IMG/VR virus record: IMGVR_UViG_3300050821_010675
Location: 1-21,902 of that record
DNA: 21,902 bases
Direction: 5' to 3' (one strand)
Origin: a virus
Below, piece after piece: positions 1,644 through 21,902 of this stretch. The notes below the pieces were generated by a model. It saw nothing but the letters and a program-made list of their open reading frames with translations. It had not been told where the DNA came from and made no database searches. The position numbers and the translations under genes are program-made. Numbering within the stretch: position 1 is the stretch's first letter; every line of letters starts with the position of its first letter.

Positions 1644-3797
1644 CTACGTGGTGACGATGAACTTCGCGACAACGAACGCGACGGGGTACTTCAGCGTCAC
1701 GTCGGTGAGCATGAACGTGGTGAGTTCGATCATGCCCTGCTTCTTCAGGCGGTAGGGGTCCACCACCAGTTCGAAGCCGCTCCCCCACATGCCGATGACC
1801 ATCGTCTCGAAGATTCCACGGATGAGCGTGTGCAGAGTCGCGCCGCTCGAACCCTTCGTGGAGTTCTTGGTGACTTGGTTCGAAGAGCGCGCGCGGTAGC
1901 CGTCAACCGTGGAGTCGTCCGCCCAGATCGGCAAACCGATGGTGTTCCCCAAGCGAGCCGTGCGCTTGAGAGACGATTTGATTCCCGGCGTGGTCAGCCA
2001 TGCGCCGTCGCCGAGTTGATCCGCGTTCGCGTCTTCGAGCAGTTCGGACATCTTGACGATGTCGTCCCACGATAGCGCGCCGCCGTTGCCAGCATCCGCG
2101 ATGGCCACATACGACTGAACGCCAGACGTGGAGCCGATGCCGAGAGGTTGGTTCGAGCCGCCGCCGACGATGGCGACGCTGTCCACGGCGAGAGCCATGT
2201 CGCGAGCCAGGTCTTCACGCACGAGAGTGTCGACGTCCACCACCGCCTGCGCGAGCAATTGCCGCGAGTAGCTGCTCGAAGATTGGTACGTCTTCGGGGA
2301 GCTTGCGATGGAGCCGAGAGTCAGCGCGGAGTCCGCCACGTCGGAACCGGGATTTTCTCCAACCCACGAGCCGGACGCTTTCCCGGTCTGCTTCGGGTAG
2401 GAGACGTTGTCGCGGAGACCCGCGATGGTGCGCGCGCCGAGTTCCTTCACGCGCATCGAGTTGTACAGAAACTGAATGAACTCACCCGGCTCGGTGAATT
2501 TCAGTTCCTGCCCTGCGGTCGCCGTGCCGGAGTCCAGACCGGCGCGCATTTCGAAGAGCTTCGGGTACTTCGCCCGGAGTTCCGGCGTCATGGCGTGACG
2601 TATGCTCCACGGGATGAACAAACCACCGTGGCGCGAACCCTTCCAATCTTTCTCGATGGTGTCGCTGATCTCCATCTCGAAAGAGTTCTCACGCTTCGAG
2701 GACCCGCCACTGGATGCGGCCTCGATGTTTTTCACGGCGGTCATGATCCCGCGCGCGAGGTTGTATTCCTTCTGCTCTTTTTCGGTCAGGTCTACCCGCT
2801 CCTGGCCGTCGGTTGGCGGCTGCACGAGCGTTTTCCCGCCGCGCTTCGCCACTTCCTCCAGAACGAACCGCGAGAACTCGTCGACGGATTTACCGCCAGC
2901 GACGAACTCGGCTGCCTTTTCCTGATCGATTCCGTGGACCTTGCCGAGCCGAATGATTTCAGCGGCGGCGGTCCGGGAGTCGTTTACAGCTGTTGCTGTA
3001 TTTGGTTCCACTTTGACCTCCTTGAGATTCGGCTCGGAAGCCGGATTTGCACTGCGAACTAAAACTGGGTACTGCCGGTCCCCGGCCTTGCGGTCGTTGC
3101 CGACCGTCGGATCGGCGGGGACGCCTACAGAACTTGCCTCCATCGGGGTCCACTTCGACGCACGGTACGTGTCGCCCTCGTCCTTCGAACTCGTCACGAG
3201 GGTGTACTCGTTCACCATGTAGCCGACGGAGATGAACCGCCGAATGCCGTCCTGAATGTCCTGTTTGATCTGCTGCGCCGGAGCGCTGCGAGAGAAACGG
3301 ACTTCGCCGCGGAGCTTCTTGTCGTCTCCGACTTTCACCTTCTCGACGATGCCGATGACCGACTTCGCGTCGTGGGAATCCAGAAAAGAGAGTCCGCGCT
3401 TCGCGCGCGATAGGTCGACCGCGTCGGCCGAATGGTCTAGGACTTCTTTCCCGAACCATCGATCGACCGGGTACTCCGAAGAGATCGAAATGGCGAAACG
3501 GTCTTCGTCGCGTTTCCCCGCCGCCTCGTCTTCTTCGTTGTCCGTGTCGTCCGAATTTTCGTCGGCGTCGTCGTCATCGTCCTCTTCGTCATCGTCCGCG
3601 GAATCGGCCGGCTTCCCCGCGGCTGCTTTCTTCTTGCGCTCCTCCTCGGCCGCGGCGCGCGCAGCGACCTCCTCCGGCGTGAGAACTTTCTTCTGGCGCC
3701 TCTTGATCGGCTTCATCTCCAGAACTTCGAACTCGCGCGAGAGCATCGGGAGCGAGTCGCCGAGCTTTTCTTTTGTCCTTACCAGCGTTGGGTTCAT
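1644..3797 (-). CDS. prohead protease - HK97-fold major capsid fusion protein
   Basis: 717 residues; ATG overlaps the portal stop by four bases (ATGA) with AGGAGG just upstream. Three parts are visible. Residues 1-95 are charged, with an unusual Asp/Glu run at about 68-91. Residues 96-235 resemble a U35/HK97 prohead protease: the FLDSHD segment puts a candidate catalytic His at 142 and FISVGY a candidate Ser at 190. Residues 275-370 are a helical scaffold-like delta region. Residues 375-717 are the HK97-fold capsid, with an RVKELGARTI stretch, GVQSYV, a DAAW-like DGAWLTTPGI and a beta-rich end. Protease, scaffold and shell are thus made as one chain and probably self-cleave near residue 370. 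Such fusions are known in phages but less common than separate genes. Confidence 0.93.
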   Translation of the reverse strand: MNPTLVRTKEKLGDSLPMLSREFEVLEMKPIKRRQKKVLTPEEVAARAAAEEERKKKAAAGKPADSADDDEEDDDDDADENSDDTDNEEDEAAGKRDEDRFAISISSEYPVDRWFGKEVLDHSADAVDLSRAKRGLSFLDSHDAKSVIGIVEKVKVGDDKKLRGEVRFSRSAPAQQIKQDIQDGIRRFISVGYMVNEYTLVTSSKDEGDTYRASKWTPMEASSVGVPADPTVGNDRKAGDRQYPVLVRSANPASEPNLKEVKVEPNTATAVNDSRTAAAEIIRLGKVHGIDQEKAAEFVAGGKSVDEFSRFVLEEVAKRGGKTLVQPPTDGQERVDLTEKEQKEYNLARGIMTAVKNIEAASSGGSSKRENSFEMEISDTIEKDWKGSRHGGLFIPWSIRHAMTPELRAKYPKLFEMRAGLDSGTATAGQELKFTEPGEFIQFLYNSMRVKELGARTIAGLRDNVSYPKQTGKASGSWVGENPGSDVADSALTLGSIASSPKTYQSSSSYSRQLLAQAVVDVDTLVREDLARDMALAVDSVAIVGGGSNQPLGIGSTSGVQSYVAIADAGNGGALSWDDIVKMSELLEDANADQLGDGAWLTTPGIKSSLKRTARLGNTIGLPIWADDSTVDGYRARSSNQVTKNSTKGSSGATLHTLIRGIFETMVIGMWGSGFELVVDPYRLKKQGMIELTTFMLTDVTLKYPVAFVVAKFIVTT

Positions 3798-8136: not shown

Positions 8137-10080
8137 TCAGCGCCATCCCTGCACCCATCCAGACCCCGAGTTACCGCGGCCCGAACCCCCAGATGACCCG
8201 CCAGAGCCGCCCGTAGCGCCCCCAGAGCCACCGCCGTCCGGCCCCGGCTCGACCGGCACGCGGAGCGCCGCGGCCATTTCCCCGAGCCGCCGGAGCGTCT
8301 GCTGGCCCAGAACGTAGAGCGCCGCGAGCGAATAGACTTCGAGGTCCAGCGCTTCGTTGCGCGCGCGCGTCTTCACGTACTCGCGGATCGTTCCCTTGCC
8401 GCGGCGGTACCGTCGGATCGCCTTCTCGGAGGTCAGCTGCGCGAGGTACTCGTCCTCGGCGAAGTCGGGGAGATGCATGTAGCCGGGTCCGGGTCCTGGG
8501 ATTTTCAGGCGCGCGAAGATTCGGTCCTTCGCCGTGTCGGTGCCGATGAGCCAGAGCCGAATTCGGTACGCGTTGTTCGTCGAGAACTTCCCGAGGATTT
8601 CCTTCCCGGCTTCGCTGCTGCCTTTGAGCGCGAAGATTTTCCTATGCTGGCGCGCGCGCACGAACCGATAGACGGAGTCAGTGTGCAGACCGCCGGAGTC
8701 GATCATCGTGACGGTGATATTCACCTTCTCCCCGGACGCGTGATCCCACGTCGAGAGCAGGAACGAATCAAGTTCGTTCCACACGGTCTCCTGCCCCGGA
8801 TCTCCGAAGCATTGCTGGTAGGCGATGAGCCAAGATTCTTCTTTCTCGCCCCAACCCTTCACAACCACTTCGAGACGGTCGCTCTGAACGTCGACGGCCG
8901 CTGTGAGCAACCCGACGCCGTCTGGGACTTCCGCCTGATATGGTTCGAGCCTCCCCTTCAGAGTGATCGCTTCGACGGAGTCGCCCTGCTCCTCCCAAGT
9001 CTCGGCAAGTCGGAGATTTACAAAAGCTTTCAGCTTCTCTGGATTGCCTTCTTTGTTGGCCTCGTGCCACTCCTGCGCGAGTTGAAACCAATTTTCGCGC
9101 CACGGTGAGTAGAGCGCGTTGATGTGGAACCCCACCACCGGCCGGTCGGGAAACTCCGCAACCCACTCGCCGCCGTTGAGCATTTGCTGTTTGTAGCGTT
9201 CGCTGATGAGCTTCGCGCACGCGGCAGCGGCGCATTTGTAGGCGACGCTCGCCGGGTCCACTTGCCCGTCGGCGTTTACGGCATACGATAGCCGGTACTC
9301 TTTCGTCGCCGGGTCCCTCCACCAGAGCACCTGCGACGCGGAGCAGAACGGACAGCGAACGTGGAAGCGCCGCATGTCGGACCGGAGGAAGTCGCGCTCG
9401 ATTGCGCTTATCCCTTTCGGCTTCGCTGGCGTTGAACCCTTGACGATTTTCCAGTCGGCGTAACCGTCCGTGCGGCGAGTGCCGATGGCCACGGGATCGC
9501 CCTCGCCGTCGACGTCTAGCGGGTAGCCGTCCACTTCATCGAAGAGAACAACGGGGACAGGATCTGAGCGGAGACCCGCGCCGGAGTTCGCGCCGGTGAG
9601 TTTAAGGAACCCGCCGGGAAATTCCTTCAGGGCGAGCGTGTTCCCCGCGCGCCGCGAAGTCGGCGGTTTTATTTTTTCGCGGAGCGCTGGGCAATTCTCG
9701 ATCATCGGAGTGATCCGCTTCTTTCCATAATCTTTGGCATTTTCTATCGTCGGCTGCACGATCATCAGCGGACGGGGATCGGCATCGATAAAATATCCGC
9801 AGATGTTGTTGAGCACAGCGTCGCTGTAGCCCACCTGCGTGCATTTCATGATCACCACCTCGTGAACGAGCGGGTCGATGATCACGTCCATGAGTTCTAT
9901 CTGAAACTTTTCGGGCTTGAATGGCCCAGGTCGTGAAGTCGTTCCTTTGGGAAGCACTCGATTGCGGATCGCCCACTCAGAGACGGTGAGATCGGGAGGC
10001 GGCTCATAGTGACGCCACGCACGCGCCAACATGTCGTTAAACTTCACCGCGCCAGATTGGTGAGTTTCTACTTGCGACAT
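8137..10080 (-). CDS. terminase large subunit, GpA family
   Basis: 647 residues; start ATG chosen because AGAGG lies upstream and it overlaps the HNH gene by 13 bases. It is the DNA-packaging motor and headful/cos nuclease. The ATPase part has the atypical Walker A region of GpA proteins ([10 protein letters not shown], 78-86) and Walker [12 protein letters not shown] (177-187); the CPFC and CAAAAC Cys pairs (243-288) suggest a zinc site. The nuclease part has [12 protein letters not shown] (394-405), MIDSGG (459-464), and a basic [20 protein letters not shown] segment near 561-580. The last 35 residues are a Gly/Ser-rich tail, probably the portal-binding end. Length is normal for the family. 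Confidence 0.96.
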
Positions 10081-10535
10081 CCTCGCCTCTGATTTCGAGC
10101 TTGCTGGGAGCGCGTAGCCCACCTGCAATTCGAAGTGTAGTAGTGGCCGTCGTTATCACGGCGGTCAAGAGAGCGCCCACGCGGACGTGTCCCCATGTCT
10201 GAGAAAAAAGCGGCGAAGGAGCGGAGCCATCGTGAACAAACTCGAATACCCCGTGCTCCATAAAATTTCCACGCGTTGCACCTTCGGTTCGTGCACCGCT
10301 GAATCATGGAGTCCCAGGAGTGGTACTCCCTCGAAAAACTCATCCCGTGAATGCGTCGGCTACATCCGCAGGACGATGTGTGCCCAGACAGAAGATTTGT
10401 CCCTGAGACCGTCCGGGGAGACGAGCCACAAGCGCACTGAACTTTCCATCGCGACTGGCGAAGCCGTGTGCTCGAATGGAACTTCAGGACACGTAGCCGT
10501 CCAAATTTCCTGCCCGTTAGATCACGCCTCAACAT
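10068..10535 (-). CDS. HNH-type (homing-like) endonuclease between terminase genes
   Basis: 155 residues; ATG with GGAGGTGA eight bases upstream. N-terminal [13 protein letters not shown], a Cys pattern (CACG and CGC), the central [12 protein letters not shown] and [11 protein letters not shown], and a C-terminal [19 protein letters not shown] are hallmarks of a widespread phage family related to HNH homing endonucleases. It overlaps small terminase by 14 bases at its start and large terminase by 13 at its end, so it is fully wired into the operon. It may cut DNA at terminase loci lacking it, or act in packaging as HNH proteins beside HK97-type terminases do. Which of these is not decided by sequence. 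Confidence 0.8.
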
Positions 10536-17661: not shown

Positions 17662-17873
17662 TTTGCCCTCCAGAATCCGCCGCCGACTTCTTGCACCTCG
17701 CCCTGATCGCGGAGACCCTGCAGCGCTTCCCACACGTCGTCGAGCCGGACCTTCAAGAGCCACGCGAGGTCCCCGGCCGTGGCAGGAGTTCCTGTGAGCC
17801 GGAGCGCCTGGATAATGCGCTCCACGAGCGGCAGTCTCTCCCACAGCTTCAGCTGCTCCGCGGGAATCCTCAC
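17658..17873 (-). CDS. winged-helix-like small protein after integrase
   Basis: 71 residues; GTGA overlap with the integrase stop and AAGGAG six bases upstream. LVERIIQALRLTGTPATAGDLAWLLKVRLDDVWEALQGLRDQGEVQEVGGGFWRA has the helix, helix, recognition-helix, wing layout of small winged-helix DNA-binding proteins. Directly coupled to the integrase, it could be a recombination directionality factor (excisionase). Most excisionases are of this size and fold, but the sequence alone does not decide. Confidence 0.62.
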   Translation of the reverse strand: MRIPAEQLKLWERLPLVERIIQALRLTGTPATAGDLAWLLKVRLDDVWEALQGLRDQGEVQEVGGGFWRAK

Positions 17874-18910
17874 CGGCGTCTCCTTGGTACCGCCGCCTCG
17901 ACGTTCATCTTTGCGACCGCCGCCTTCCGGTGATCGGCCGAGAGATGCGAGTACCGCATGGTCTGCACGATGGACTTGTGGCCGAGCAGTTCCTGCACAG
18001 TGCGGATATCGACCCCGGCCATCACGAGCCGCGAGGCGAACGTGTGCCGGAGATCGTGCCAGTGGAAGTTCGAGACCCTCGCCGCTTTCGCCGCGTCGGT
18101 CAGCCAGGTCCTCCAGTCCCTCTTTTGCGTTCCATCGTTGTCCGGACAGACGAACTCGCGCTCGCCGGAGATCGTCTGCAATTTCACGAGCGCCGCAATT
18201 GCCGTGGTGTTCGCGACGATGTGGCGCCTGCCGGTCTTCCCGTTGACCGTCAGATTTCCCCGTTCAAGGTCGATATCTTTCCATCGAAGCCAGAACTGCT
18301 CGCCGCGGCGAATCCCCGTGTGCAGCGCCAGGTCGAACTCCCACTCGTGCGAATCGACGTGGAACTCCCGGCGGATTTTTTCTTCCTCCTCCGGCCGGAG
18401 CCAACGGAGACGGGAATCGTTCTCCTTGTAGCGGCCGACGCGAGCGACCGGGTTCGCGGAAATCAAATTCGTTTTGAGCGCGTGACTGAACACGCTGCTG
18501 ATGAACGAGCGGTAACGATTGAGCGTGGAGTTCGAAAGAGGTTTGTCCTTCAGCTTCGCGAGCACATGCTCGATGACCTCTGGGGTGAGTCGGTCGTAAC
18601 GCATCGCGCCGATGTGAGGCACGAGCTGGCCCAGGCGGATCGTGTCGGTCGCGATGGTTTGGGGAGCGAGCCGGAGAGCCTTCCGCTTGATCGTCTCCTC
18701 GGCCAACTTTTTGAAAGTCCACGCGCGCGTCTGCCGCGGCGGAATGTATTCGCCCTTCTTCACCTGCAGCCTGCGAGCCGCCAGCAAATCGAGAGCCGCC
18801 GCTAGTTTTCCCGCCTTCTCCCGCCGACGCATGCCGGTGGTGTCGGTGTAGGAAACCCAGTGAATGCCGCTGTTCGGCGGTCTCTCGAAAATGCCGGGGA
18901 TTTTGCTCAT
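17870..18910 (-). CDS. int: tyrosine integrase
   Basis: 346 residues; ATG two bases after the previous stop. N-terminal arm-binding type strand (GIHWVSYTDTTGMRRREKAG), a core-binding SAM-like domain at ~65-155, and the catalytic domain at ~165-335. Active-site residues are present: Arg201 (TGIRRGE), Lys225 (NGKTGRRH), His285 and Arg288 (HDLRHTFAS), His311 (LLGHKS) and nucleophile Tyr320 (MRYSHLS). It inserts and excises phage DNA at an attachment site. It sits inside an overlapping gene chain; attP is not evident beside it. Confidence 0.95.
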   Translation of the reverse strand: MSKIPGIFERPPNSGIHWVSYTDTTGMRRREKAGKLAAALDLLAARRLQVKKGEYIPPRQTRAWTFKKLAEETIKRKALRLAPQTIATDTIRLGQLVPHIGAMRYDRLTPEVIEHVLAKLKDKPLSNSTLNRYRSFISSVFSHALKTNLISANPVARVGRYKENDSRLRWLRPEEEEKIRREFHVDSHEWEFDLALHTGIRRGEQFWLRWKDIDLERGNLTVNGKTGRRHIVANTTAIAALVKLQTISGEREFVCPDNDGTQKRDWRTWLTDAAKAARVSNFHWHDLRHTFASRLVMAGVDIRTVQELLGHKSIVQTMRYSHLSADHRKAAVAKMNVEAAVPRRRR

Positions 18911-18912
18911 GG

Positions 18913-19182
18913 CTACTCGATGAATCCCCACTTCGGCGAGACCGCGATTTGCAGGCTGTTGCTCGTGACCTTGCCGTTGTTCGTTGACATACTCCCCGAC
19001 GCCGAGACCTCGACGACTTGCGACGGGTCCTGACCGGCCAGAGCTGCGTCGATCATGTGCGCCGCGGCCTGGCGAATCGTCTCCTCGGGCTCAGCGCATT
19101 TACTGGCGTCAGCAAACTGCTTCGCGACTTTCTCGGCAACCGCTGGCGCTCTTCCAAAAACAGTTCCTATGCTCCAAGACAT
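18913..19182 (-). CDS. small conserved phage protein (MSWS type)
   Basis: 89 residues; the ATG eight bases after AAGGAG is used rather than an upstream one only two bases away. MSWSIGTVFGRAPAVAEKV, IRQAAAHMIDAAL, VVEVSASGSM and a C-terminal SLQIAVSPKWG give an alpha/beta protein of the widespread early-region family beginning MSW. Function unknown. It directly precedes the integrase. Confidence 0.72.
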   Translation of the reverse strand: MSWSIGTVFGRAPAVAEKVAKQFADASKCAEPEETIRQAAAHMIDAALAGQDPSQVVEVSASGSMSTNNGKVTSNSLQIAVSPKWGFIE

Positions 19183-20466: not shown

Positions 20467-20745
20467 TCAGACGCGCGCGGGTTCAGGTTTCAGGGAAGAG
20501 GTCGTGTAGCGTTCGCTTTCGACCTCGCGGAAGTGCTGATAGATTTCGTCCAGGGAGAGCGCGACGCCGCGCTGCTTCGCGAGCTTCTGGATTTTGAGCG
20601 CGTTGGCGGGATGGGGAGACGTCGAGCCGCGGAGCCAGTGGTAGATCGCGGACGGGTTGACCGCAAGCCGGCGCGCGAGTTCCTCTACACCGAATCCTCG
20701 AACGAACTGGTCGAACTTGGTCGGCTCCTGCGGTTTTTTCGACAC
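20467..20745 (-). CDS. XRE/Cro-type HTH DNA-binding protein
   Basis: 92 residues from a GTG with AAGGGAG six bases upstream; the upstream in-frame ATG at 20769 overlaps the preceding micro-gene by four bases but has no ribosome site. FGVEELARRLAVNPSAIYHWLRGSTSPHPANALKIQKLAKQRG is a classical helix-turn-helix (lambda Cro/CI fold). The small size and lack of a cleavage or dimer domain suggest a Cro-like regulator of early transcription. No paired repressor is seen in the window; it may lie past the right edge. Confidence 0.8.
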   Translation of the reverse strand: MSKKPQEPTKFDQFVRGFGVEELARRLAVNPSAIYHWLRGSTSPHPANALKIQKLAKQRGVALSLDEIYQHFREVESERYTTSSLKPEPARV

Positions 20746-20765: not shown

Positions 20766-20924
20766 TCATAGATTTAGGGGGATGAAGATGCGGTCAGAGT
20801 ATGGCGTAGCTATTAGGGAACCCGTACGGATACGGACCGCATGACGATTCCCAAATCGCTCAGATACAATCATCCTGACCGCTCTCCTTCCCCCGGCACT
20901 GCCGTAAAAAATCGTAGCGTTCAT
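20766..20924 (-). CDS. repeated micro-gene, copy 1
   Basis: 52 residues; ATG five bases after the stop of the preceding gene. Sequence features: ATIFYGSAGGRRAV, IVSERFGNRHAVRI, YSDRIFIPLNL. No known family recognised. It shares a 110-bp block (20819-20928) with copy 2 (21286-21395), with four differences, and its end resembles copies 2 and 3. Stop overlaps the ATG of the HTH frame (ATGA). Confidence 0.62.
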   Translation of the reverse strand: MNATIFYGSAGGRRAVRMIVSERFGNRHAVRIRTGSLIATPYSDRIFIPLNL

Positions 20925-20928
20925 TTCG
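20819..20928. repeat. 110-bp block shared with 21286-21395
   Basis: I count four mismatches between the two 110-bp copies, an offset of 467 bases. The block covers the N-terminal half of the micro-genes and the start of each. DNA-level identity this high, including silent sites, indicates a recent duplication or gene conversion. Confidence 0.85.
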
Positions 20929-20929
20929 G

Positions 20930-21175
20930 TCACTTCCGCGGAGCTTCGACGTCCGGACCCGGATCATTCACCTTGAGAAAAAAACGCTTCCCTGGAATCG
21001 CCTCCATCCGGTCCTCGTCGAACCACCTCGCCTCTTCGAACGTGCCTCCCTTTTTTTTCACTGGAGGCTGCACCAGAAGTTGATTGCATCCGGTGATGTA
21101 CTGGACGCGGCCGGTCACCATTCCTTCGAAACCAGTGATCCTGTCGCGGACCTTCAAACCGAGAACGTTCTCCAT
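20930..21175 (-). CDS. small conserved phage protein (VRDRITGFEG type)
   Basis: 81 residues; ATG with AAGGAGGAG four bases upstream, used in preference to an upstream start lacking a site. GLKVRDRITGFEGMVTGRVQYITGCNQLLVQPP, then WFDEDRMEAI, is a common short beta-barrel-like phage protein of unknown function, often next to replication genes. It lies between copies 1 and 2 of the micro-gene. Confidence 0.78.
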   Translation of the reverse strand: MENVLGLKVRDRITGFEGMVTGRVQYITGCNQLLVQPPVKKKGGTFEEARWFDEDRMEAIPGKRFFLKVNDPGPDVEAPRK

Positions 21176-21217
21176 TTCTCCTCCTTGAATTTTCCACAAA
21201 CACACTTATCCCCATGC

Positions 21218-21291
21218 GCTTCATAGGTTTAAGGGTATGTAGATGCGATTCGGATGTTGCTGCTGGAGTTCTGTAGCTATTTCGTAACCCG
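21218..21291. repeat. 74-bp block shared with 21784-21857
   Basis: Four differences in 74 bp, offset 566 bases. It covers the C-terminal half of the micro-gene (YEIATELQQQHPNRIYIPLNL) and its stop. Copy 2 is thus a mosaic of the other two. Confidence 0.83.
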
Positions 21292-21403
21292 TATGGATAC
21301 GGACCGCATGACGATTCCCAGATCGCTCAGATACAATCATCCTGACCGCTCTCCTTCCCCGGGCACTGCCGTAAAAAATCGTAGCGTTCACTTCGAATCC
21401 CAT
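21221..21403 (-). CDS. repeated micro-gene, copy 2 (mosaic)
   Basis: 60 residues from the ATG with GGAG upstream; the equivalent of copy 1's start is a GTG at 21391, which forms a GTGA overlap with the upstream stop. The N-terminal part follows copy 1 (ATIFYGSARGRRAV, IVSERSGNRHAVRI) while the C-terminal part (GYEIATELQQQHPNRIYIPL) follows copy 3. Unknown function. It sits before the small VRDRITGFEG gene. Confidence 0.62.
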   Translation of the reverse strand: MGFEVNATIFYGSARGRRAVRMIVSERSGNRHAVRIHTGYEIATELQQQHPNRIYIPLNL

Positions 21404-21741
21404 TTCCACTCCGCTTCGCAATTTTCGCGATATCGCAGAATCTCTCTGTCGAACGCGTGGGATTCTCGATGGTTCTTCAACAGATAGCACCTGAGACCTT
21501 CGCCATTAATTTCGTCGCACTGCTCTTGTTCGTGCCCTTGGCAGACACTCACGGGATCGAAGTTTTTTCCATTCACTGGAAACTGATATCTCTCCCGTCG
21601 ACCGACGAGCACGGCATGATGCCGGTTGCCATCCGTATCGATTGGCCCAGTGTTATTTTCAGCGTGACAGATCGTGCTCCAGCTTGTCGGTCGTGGAACT
21701 GGAACTTCTTCCCCGCAAAATACGCAATGTTTATGGCCCAT
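21388..21741 (-). CDS. Cys-rich small protein
   Basis: 117 residues; ATG six bases after GAGGAG, used instead of a GTG ten codons upstream without a site. CVFCGEEV at the start and further Cys and His residues (ICH, VCQGHEQEQC, RCYLLKNHRESH) give candidate zinc ligands. No known family recognised. It lies between copies 2 and 3 of the micro-gene and overlaps copy 2. Confidence 0.62.
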   Translation of the reverse strand: MGHKHCVFCGEEVPVPRPTSWSTICHAENNTGPIDTDGNRHHAVLVGRRERYQFPVNGKNFDPVSVCQGHEQEQCDEINGEGLRCYLLKNHRESHAFDREILRYRENCEAEWKWDSK

Positions 21742-21786
21742 CTTGCACTCCTCAGACTTCTTCAAACGCACCTATCCGTCTATGCT

Positions 21787-21902
21787 TCATAGGTTTAAGG
21801 GGATATAGATGCGGTTAGGATGTTGCTGCTGGAGTTCTGTAGCTATTTCGTAACCCGCACGGGAACGGGTTTCCATTGCTCCACAAAAAACCGGCGCGGT
21901 CA
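21787..21902 (-). CDS. repeated micro-gene, copy 3, cut by window edge or shortened
   Basis: Ends with the same 21 residues as copy 2 (GYEIATELQQQHPNRIYIPLN). Upstream, an ATG at 21876 gives a 29-residue form with GGAG only two bases away, while the frame stays open to the window edge and includes a segment (VFCGAM) that resembles IFYGSA of the other copies. So it may be a version missing about 20 central residues, or the end of a longer gene. Confidence 0.5.
   Translation of the reverse strand, partial: TAPVFCGAMETRSRAGYEIATELQQQHPNRIYIPLNL

What the first reader, a model, noticed from the sequence alone, without database searches (positions are those of the whole stretch)
20766..21902. Three mosaic copies of a micro-gene, each in front of a different gene
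The micro-gene occurs before the HTH gene, before the VRDRITGFEG gene and before the Cys-rich gene. Copy 2 is 96% identical to copy 1 over 110 bp in its N-terminal half and about 95% identical to copy 3 over 74 bp in its C-terminal half. A duplicated leader-like micro-gene, exchanged by recombination and always directly upstream of another gene, could be a leader peptide, a repeated regulatory RNA, or a toxin/inhibitor-like peptide. I recognise no known family.
Basis: partly seen in the sequence, partly recalled or inferred. Interest (0 to 1): 0.66.

Follow-up and report, generated by a model that had tools for sequence, protein, structure and literature searches.

The report
Stacked phage integrase attachment-site copies
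The repeated "micro-gene" is not a small gene: it is the tail end of a phage integrase gene, which contains the DNA site where the phage joins its host's chromosome, and in this phage extra copies of that site bracket two unrelated small genes, as if they had been inserted there by recombination at the site.

Summary
The three mosaic copies are real. They are not leader peptides, regulatory RNAs or toxins. In about ten related soil phages or prophages the same 3' segment is the tail of a large serine recombinase (LSR, phage integrase) gene (R-[ILMV]-[FWY]-[IL]-P-L-N-L-stop), upstream of an HTH gene, sometimes with cargo between. That segment contains attP. Three integrated relatives show it: two break a host aldo/keto reductase gene and one breaks comM of a Terriglobia MAG, exactly in this segment, and joining the flanks restores the host reading frames. 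Copy 3 looks like the attP-bearing 3' end of an LSR gene running off the contig. Copies 1 and 2 share another left arm (L2) fused to the integrase-tail arm. The mosaic switch lies at the att core: left of it copy 1 = copy 2, right of it copy 2 = copy 3. So two unrelated genes (Cys-rich, VRDRITGFEG) sit in two att-bounded units (566 and 467 bp) between integrase and HTH gene. Best reading: site-specific accretion at attP; homologous duplication plus LSR-body loss is the main rival. No second stacked case was found. The att identity is secure; the assembly route is inferred.

The parts
21790..21902 (-). Copy 3: 3' end of a large serine recombinase gene (truncated by the contig edge), containing an attP-like site; stop codon at 21787-21789
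   Evidence: Peptide TAPVFCGAMETRSRAGYEIATELQQQHPNRIYIPLNL matches LSR C-termini of L009/L041, L006/L040, L005 and L020 (E 1e-6 to 1e-4). Dyad 8/11 inner, 6/14 outer. The LSR body itself lies outside the window (inferred).
21861..21862 (-). Centre (CC) of the att-like dyad of copy 3
   Evidence: same register as attP sites reconstructed from integrated relatives
21388..21741 (-). Cys-rich gene, 117 aa; cargo of the first att-bounded unit
   Evidence: ORF; no relative in IMG/VR, no significant Pfam or PHROG match
21296..21861 (-). First att-bounded unit: P'2 arm + LSR tail + leader + Cys-rich gene + left arm L2 (566 bp core to core)
   Evidence: Repeat spacing 566; binned identities
21224..21395 (-). 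Copy 2: left arm L2 joined to P'2 arm and LSR tail; stop codon at 21221-21223
   Evidence: dyad 7/11 inner, 3/14 outer, like true attL sites
21295..21296 (-). Centre (CC) of the att-like dyad of copy 2, the mosaic switch point
20930..21175 (-). VRDRITGFEG gene, 81 aa; cargo of the second unit; PHROG_16275-like
   Evidence: PHROG_16275 E 6e-18; relatives in Rhodobacter and Pseudomonas phages
20829..21295 (-). Second att-bounded unit: P'2 arm + LSR tail + leader + VRDRITGFEG gene + left arm L2 (467 bp core to core)
   Evidence: Repeat spacing 467
20769..20928 (-). Copy 1: left arm L2 joined to P'1 arm and LSR tail; stop codon at 20766-20768
   Evidence: Right arm matches L005 (85% over 73 nt) and L020 (80% over 88 nt) at their LSR 3' ends; dyad 6/11 inner, 4/14 outer
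20828..20829 (-). Centre (CC) of the att-like dyad of copy 1
20467..20745 (-). HTH (repressor-like) gene; start probably the GTG at 20745, not the ATG at 20769 that overlaps the LSR-tail stop
   Evidence: HTH_3 and PHROG_35 hits; homologue follows the LSR or its cargo in relatives; start inferred by comparison with L020

Best explanation
The repeat is the attP-bearing 3' end of a phage large serine recombinase gene. SHOWN by sequence: in relatives the phage attachment site lies inside the last codons of the LSR gene, just ahead of an HTH gene (sometimes with one or more cargo genes between), and integration into the host gene cuts the conserved tail off the LSR. SHOWN: the window holds one such 3' end (copy 3) and two further tail-plus-att copies whose left arm (L2) differs, with the mosaic joint at the att core. 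INFERRED: two small DNA units, each running from a right half-site (P'2 with LSR tail and leader) through one gene to a left half-site (L2), were added one after the other at the attP of an ordinary LSR-P|P'1-HTH phage by recombination at the att core, most simply by the phage's own or a related LSR. This gives LSR-P|P'2-Cys-L2|P'2-VRDR-L2|P'1-HTH. The genes then sit in the usual cargo position of these phages, next to the integrase and the repressor-like gene.
For: (1) The tail peptide is the C-terminus of intact LSR ORFs in L005, L020, L009, L006, L018; Pfam Resolvase, Recombinase and Zn_ribbon_recom, PHROG_95 integrase. (2) Integrated forms: L042+L015 and L046+L007 (aldo/keto reductase), L053+L083 (comM in a Terriglobia MAG). 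The break falls inside this segment; joined flanks restore ...AYSPLGRGFLTG... and ...MNPCPCGYFGD.... (3) Dyad symmetry with covarying outer arms, e.g. TTCAGCGA/TCGCTGAA in L020 and GTCAGC/GCTGAC in L018. (4) Left arms switch at the core; right arms switch within about -1 to +10 of it. (5) Copies 1 and 2 have the dyad profile of true attL sites (inner 6-7/11, outer 3-4/14, against 6-8/11 and 3-4/14), copy 3 is closer to attP. (6) Both units share both flanks while their genes are unrelated. (7) The PLNL codons of 14 tails differ only synonymously (195 pairwise synonymous, 0 non-synonymous).
Against: The LSR body is off the contig, so copy 3 as an LSR end rests on about 40 nt of P arm. No second phage with stacked copies was found (8 IMG/VR scans; samples of 396 and 399 genomes around the Terriglobia MAG). 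Characterised serine integrases do not recombine attP with attP or attL without a directionality factor (PMC3783163), so the simplest insertion reaction is not canonical. L2 begins like the LSR gene itself (16/23), which also fits an LSR stub left by deletion. The junction evidence is sequence only.
Confidence: 0.7

Rival explanations
1. Homologous duplication plus deletion: tandem or co-infecting relatives recombined through their LSR/att regions, and the LSR bodies were then lost, leaving 3' stubs behind whatever gene lay upstream. No site-specific reaction built the array.
For: L092 is a natural LSR stub: the gene upstream of the LSR is fused to the tail YSDRIFIPLNL* in front of the HTH gene, with no LSR body. 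L2 starts like LSR codons VT[AS]P (16/23 in copy 3 and L020; only 22 of 1.8 million windows, in overlapping loci, score 16).
Against: Two arm switches coincide at the att core. Both units have the same outer boundaries (near the start codon and near the stop codon) around unrelated genes, which independent deletions would not give.
Confidence: 0.25
2. A genuine micro-gene: L2 supplies a ribosome site (AAGGAG) and ATG so that the LSR tail is expressed as a free ~35-39 aa peptide in copies 1 and 2.
For: GGAAGGAGAGCGGTCAGGATG lies in frame with the tail in both copies; the tail codons are constrained.
Against: All four copy 1/2 differences in the upstream half are non-synonymous. No free-standing version was found in any relative; the L2 core pattern was not found in related phages. 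Copy 3 and the relatives need no such peptide.
Confidence: 0.04
3. Assembly chimera: the metagenome assembler joined variants of one att region from several related phages.
For: Single metagenomic contig; the edge falls inside copy 3; shared arms could confuse assembly.
Against: The identical stretches are short compared with usual assembly k-mers (inference), each cargo gene is intact, and the three copies have three different downstream genes in a consistent order.
Confidence: 0.05

Closest known systems
Phage large serine integrases and their attP sites (phiC31, Bxb1, A118; PMC3783163)
   Same: Resolvase/Recombinase/zinc-ribbon protein, dyad att site of about 50 bp, core dinucleotide, attL/attR hybrids; a Mg chelatase gene is also the target of the serine recombinase of phage WO (PMC9203015)
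   Different: Here attP lies inside the last codons of the integrase gene, so integration truncates the integrase; the window has three stacked sites
Integration-dependent immunity of mycobacteriophage BPs (attP inside the repressor gene; PMC4557955)
   Same: Integration removes the 3' end of a phage gene, so free phage and prophage make different proteins
   Different: The truncated gene is the serine integrase itself, not the repressor; no immunity effect is shown
Tandem accretion of genomic islands by site-specific recombination, cis-mobilizable elements, CcrB-like ssrA islands of Dehalococcoides, composite SCC (PMC3146451)
   Same: Modules without their own integrase stacked between repeats of one att site
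   Different: Here the modules are single genes of about 0.5 kb inside a phage genome, at its own attP
Integron gene cassettes
   Same: Single-gene units sharing a recombination half-site, stacked beside an integrase-proximal site
   Different: Serine, not tyrosine, recombinase; no attC hairpin shown; only two units known

Membership tests
Large serine recombinase (phage integrase) | Resolvase catalytic domain, Recombinase domain and zinc ribbon in a ~500 aa protein | tested here: met
   Relatives L005 and L018: PF00239, PF07508, PF13408; PHROG_95. The window's own LSR body is off the contig.
Phage attachment site (attP) | Integrated relatives are split exactly here and the empty host site can be restored | tested here: met
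   Three prophages; aldo/keto reductase and comM frames restored
Phage attachment site (attP) | Inverted half-sites around a 2-bp core with outer zinc-domain motifs | tested here: met
   attP sites of relatives; copy 3 weaker in the outer part (6/14, p 0.11)
attL-type hybrid site (copies 1 and 2) | P' arm with outer motif joined to a left arm without the P-type outer motif | tested here: met
   Inner 6-7/11, outer 3-4/14, same as three true attL sites
attL-type hybrid site (copies 1 and 2) | Left arm comes from the bacterial target | tested here: inconclusive
   L2 not found in IMG/VR relatives or in 396 sampled genomes beyond chance-level hits; its first 23 nt resemble the LSR gene
Integron-like cassette array | Free circular cassettes and recombinase-dependent insertion at the proximal site | not testable with these tools
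   Sequence only; two units in one contig
Leader peptide / regulatory RNA / toxin peptide | Conserved free ORF or conserved RNA structure | tested here: not met

The most novel reading that the evidence does not exclude
A phage-borne, integron-like cassette system: a large serine integrase captures single-gene circular cassettes, each carrying one L2|P' att site, at its own attP inside its own gene, building a cargo array between integrase and repressor-like gene, while phage integration switches off or retunes the integrase by removing its conserved PLNL tail.
Probability: 0.15. Interest if true: 0.78.

Novelty: new variant of a known kind. Interest (0 to 1): 0.52.

Why it matters
It turns an orphan micro-gene into a precise, testable recombination site. 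It reveals a phage group (one member integrated in a Terriglobia MAG) whose integrase gene carries its own attachment site, so integration edits the integrase. It also offers a natural example of single-gene cargo stacked at a serine-integrase site, which would bear on how temperate phages pick up accessory genes.

Tried and rejected
Direct micro-peptide searches of IMG/VR, INPHARED phages, Pfam and PHROGs: nothing, because only the tail is conserved. Rfam and RNA folding: nothing. P' arm and L2 DNA scans: unrelated hits apart from known relatives. Cys-rich gene: no relatives; VRDR relatives lie in other phages and gave no tail or arm match. The low-scoring L2 matches in four genomes (E 0.001-0.01, 22-31 nt) are at chance level for that number of genomes. 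L086 is a chance match to the tail pattern. The LSR has no match in the named phage or plasmid collections at the limits used. Not tried: structure prediction, since the window holds no complete LSR.

Full report
OBSERVATION. On the - strand of the window's right end, three related segments precede the HTH gene, the VRDRITGFEG gene and the Cys-rich gene. Copy 1 and copy 2 are 94% identical over 123 nt; copy 2 and copy 3 are 86% identical over 106 nt. A degenerate 27-nt tail pattern hits the window three times and no shuffle.

WHAT IT IS. The window is a 21.9-kb virus contig with tyrosine integrase, HTH, DUF2303-like, terminase, portal and capsid genes. Using the DUF2303-like protein (PHROG_1029) I fetched 36 related loci. 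In L005, L020, L009, L006 and L018 the C-terminal half of the micro-peptide is the C-terminus of a 520-540 aa protein, followed by a homologue of the same HTH gene, directly or after one small gene. The protein is a large serine recombinase: Resolvase, Recombinase and zinc ribbon domains, PHROG_95 integrase.

THE SEGMENT IS THE ATTACHMENT SITE. In three relatives this segment is broken and joined to bacterial genes. Contig 3300047509_000176 has an LSR ending in a foreign sequence at one end (L042) and the right arm plus tail plus HTH at the other (L015). Joining the bacterial flanks restores an aldo/keto reductase frame (...AYSPLGRGFLTG...; gene named from its motif by knowledge of the family). 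Contig 3300050821_009708 (L046, L007) does the same in the same kind of gene in the opposite orientation, which fits their different core dinucleotides (GG and CC). The Terriglobia MAG JAIQEV010000001.1 has a ~40-kb prophage (L053, L083) in comM; joining restores ...MNPCPCGYFGD.... The reconstructed attP sites and those of unintegrated relatives are dyads about 50 bp long with covarying inner and outer arms. The outer motif lies where zinc-domain motifs are expected in attP, roughly positions 16-24 (PMC3783163). Integration therefore removes the last ~20 codons of the LSR. Those codons are conserved at protein level: across 14 tails the PLNL codons differ only synonymously (195 pairwise synonymous, 0 non-synonymous), so the tail probably matters in the free phage.

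THE ARRAY. Copy 3 has an LSR-type left arm up to the contig edge (TAPVFCG..., compare VTAPALCG in L042) and an attP-like dyad. Copies 1 and 2 share another left arm, L2 (~100 nt). Left of the core copy 1 = copy 2 and copy 3 differs; right of it copy 2 = copy 3, including ~30-40 nt of leader past the tail stop, and copy 1 differs. Copy 1's right arm resembles those of L005 and L020, so it is taken as the resident arm. Written out: LSR(off contig)-P|P'2-Cys-L2|P'2-VRDR-L2|P'1-HTH. The units are 566 and 467 bp core to core, share both flanks and carry unrelated genes. The dyad profile of copies 1 and 2 (good inner, no outer match on the left) equals that of the three true attL sites and differs from attP. 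L2 starts like the LSR gene (16/23) and then diverges, so it may be a variant or decayed LSR 3' end rather than a bacterial arm.

MECHANISM. The simplest single account of the joint at the core, the repeated flanks and the cargo position is stepwise accretion at attP by site-specific recombination. Shown: attP identity, truncation of the LSR on integration, joint at the core. Inferred: that the LSR did it, that the units were circular, and the order of events. Against: characterised serine integrases do not pair attP with attP or attL without a directionality factor (PMC3783163), and no second array was found in eight IMG/VR scans or in samples of 396 and 399 genomes around the Terriglobia MAG. 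The main rival, duplication by homologous recombination with loss of LSR bodies, has a natural precedent in L092, where the LSR body is gone and only the tail remains before the HTH gene.

COMPARISON. It works like site-specific accretion of islands and cis-mobilizable elements (PMC3146451) and recalls integration-dependent truncation of the BPs repressor (PMC4557955). It is not shown to be a member of either. My literature searches found no report of attP inside a serine integrase gene's 3' end, but the library is partial and this is not proof of novelty.

VERDICT. The att and LSR-tail identity is near certain. The single-gene accretion reading is favoured but unproven.

Noticed in passing
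window 17870-18931 and relatives: Many of these phages carry both a tyrosine integrase (next to the DUF2303-like gene) and the serine recombinase; the window's tyrosine integrase is 83% identical to that of the Terriglobia prophage. Why two integrases are kept is unexplained.
   Followed up: partly
L005:4923-5260, L006:4892-5262, L015:397-810, L007:158-860: The stretch between the LSR tail and the HTH gene is a variable cargo spot in relatives (different small genes), absent in L009, L018 and L020.
   Followed up: partly
L042/L015 and L046/L007: Two related phages use the same kind of host gene (aldo/keto reductase) in opposite orientation, with core dinucleotides GG and CC.
   Followed up: yes
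L092:1470-1620: A relative that lost the LSR body: the upstream gene is fused in frame to the LSR tail before the HTH gene, although the tyrosine integrase is kept.
   Followed up: yes
window 10068-10535: A small ORF between the terminase genes that looks like an HNH/AP2-type homing endonuclease; judged by eye only.
   Followed up: no
window 1644-3797: Capsid protease and major head protein appear fused in one 717-aa ORF (PHROG_617, PHROG_4523).
   Followed up: no
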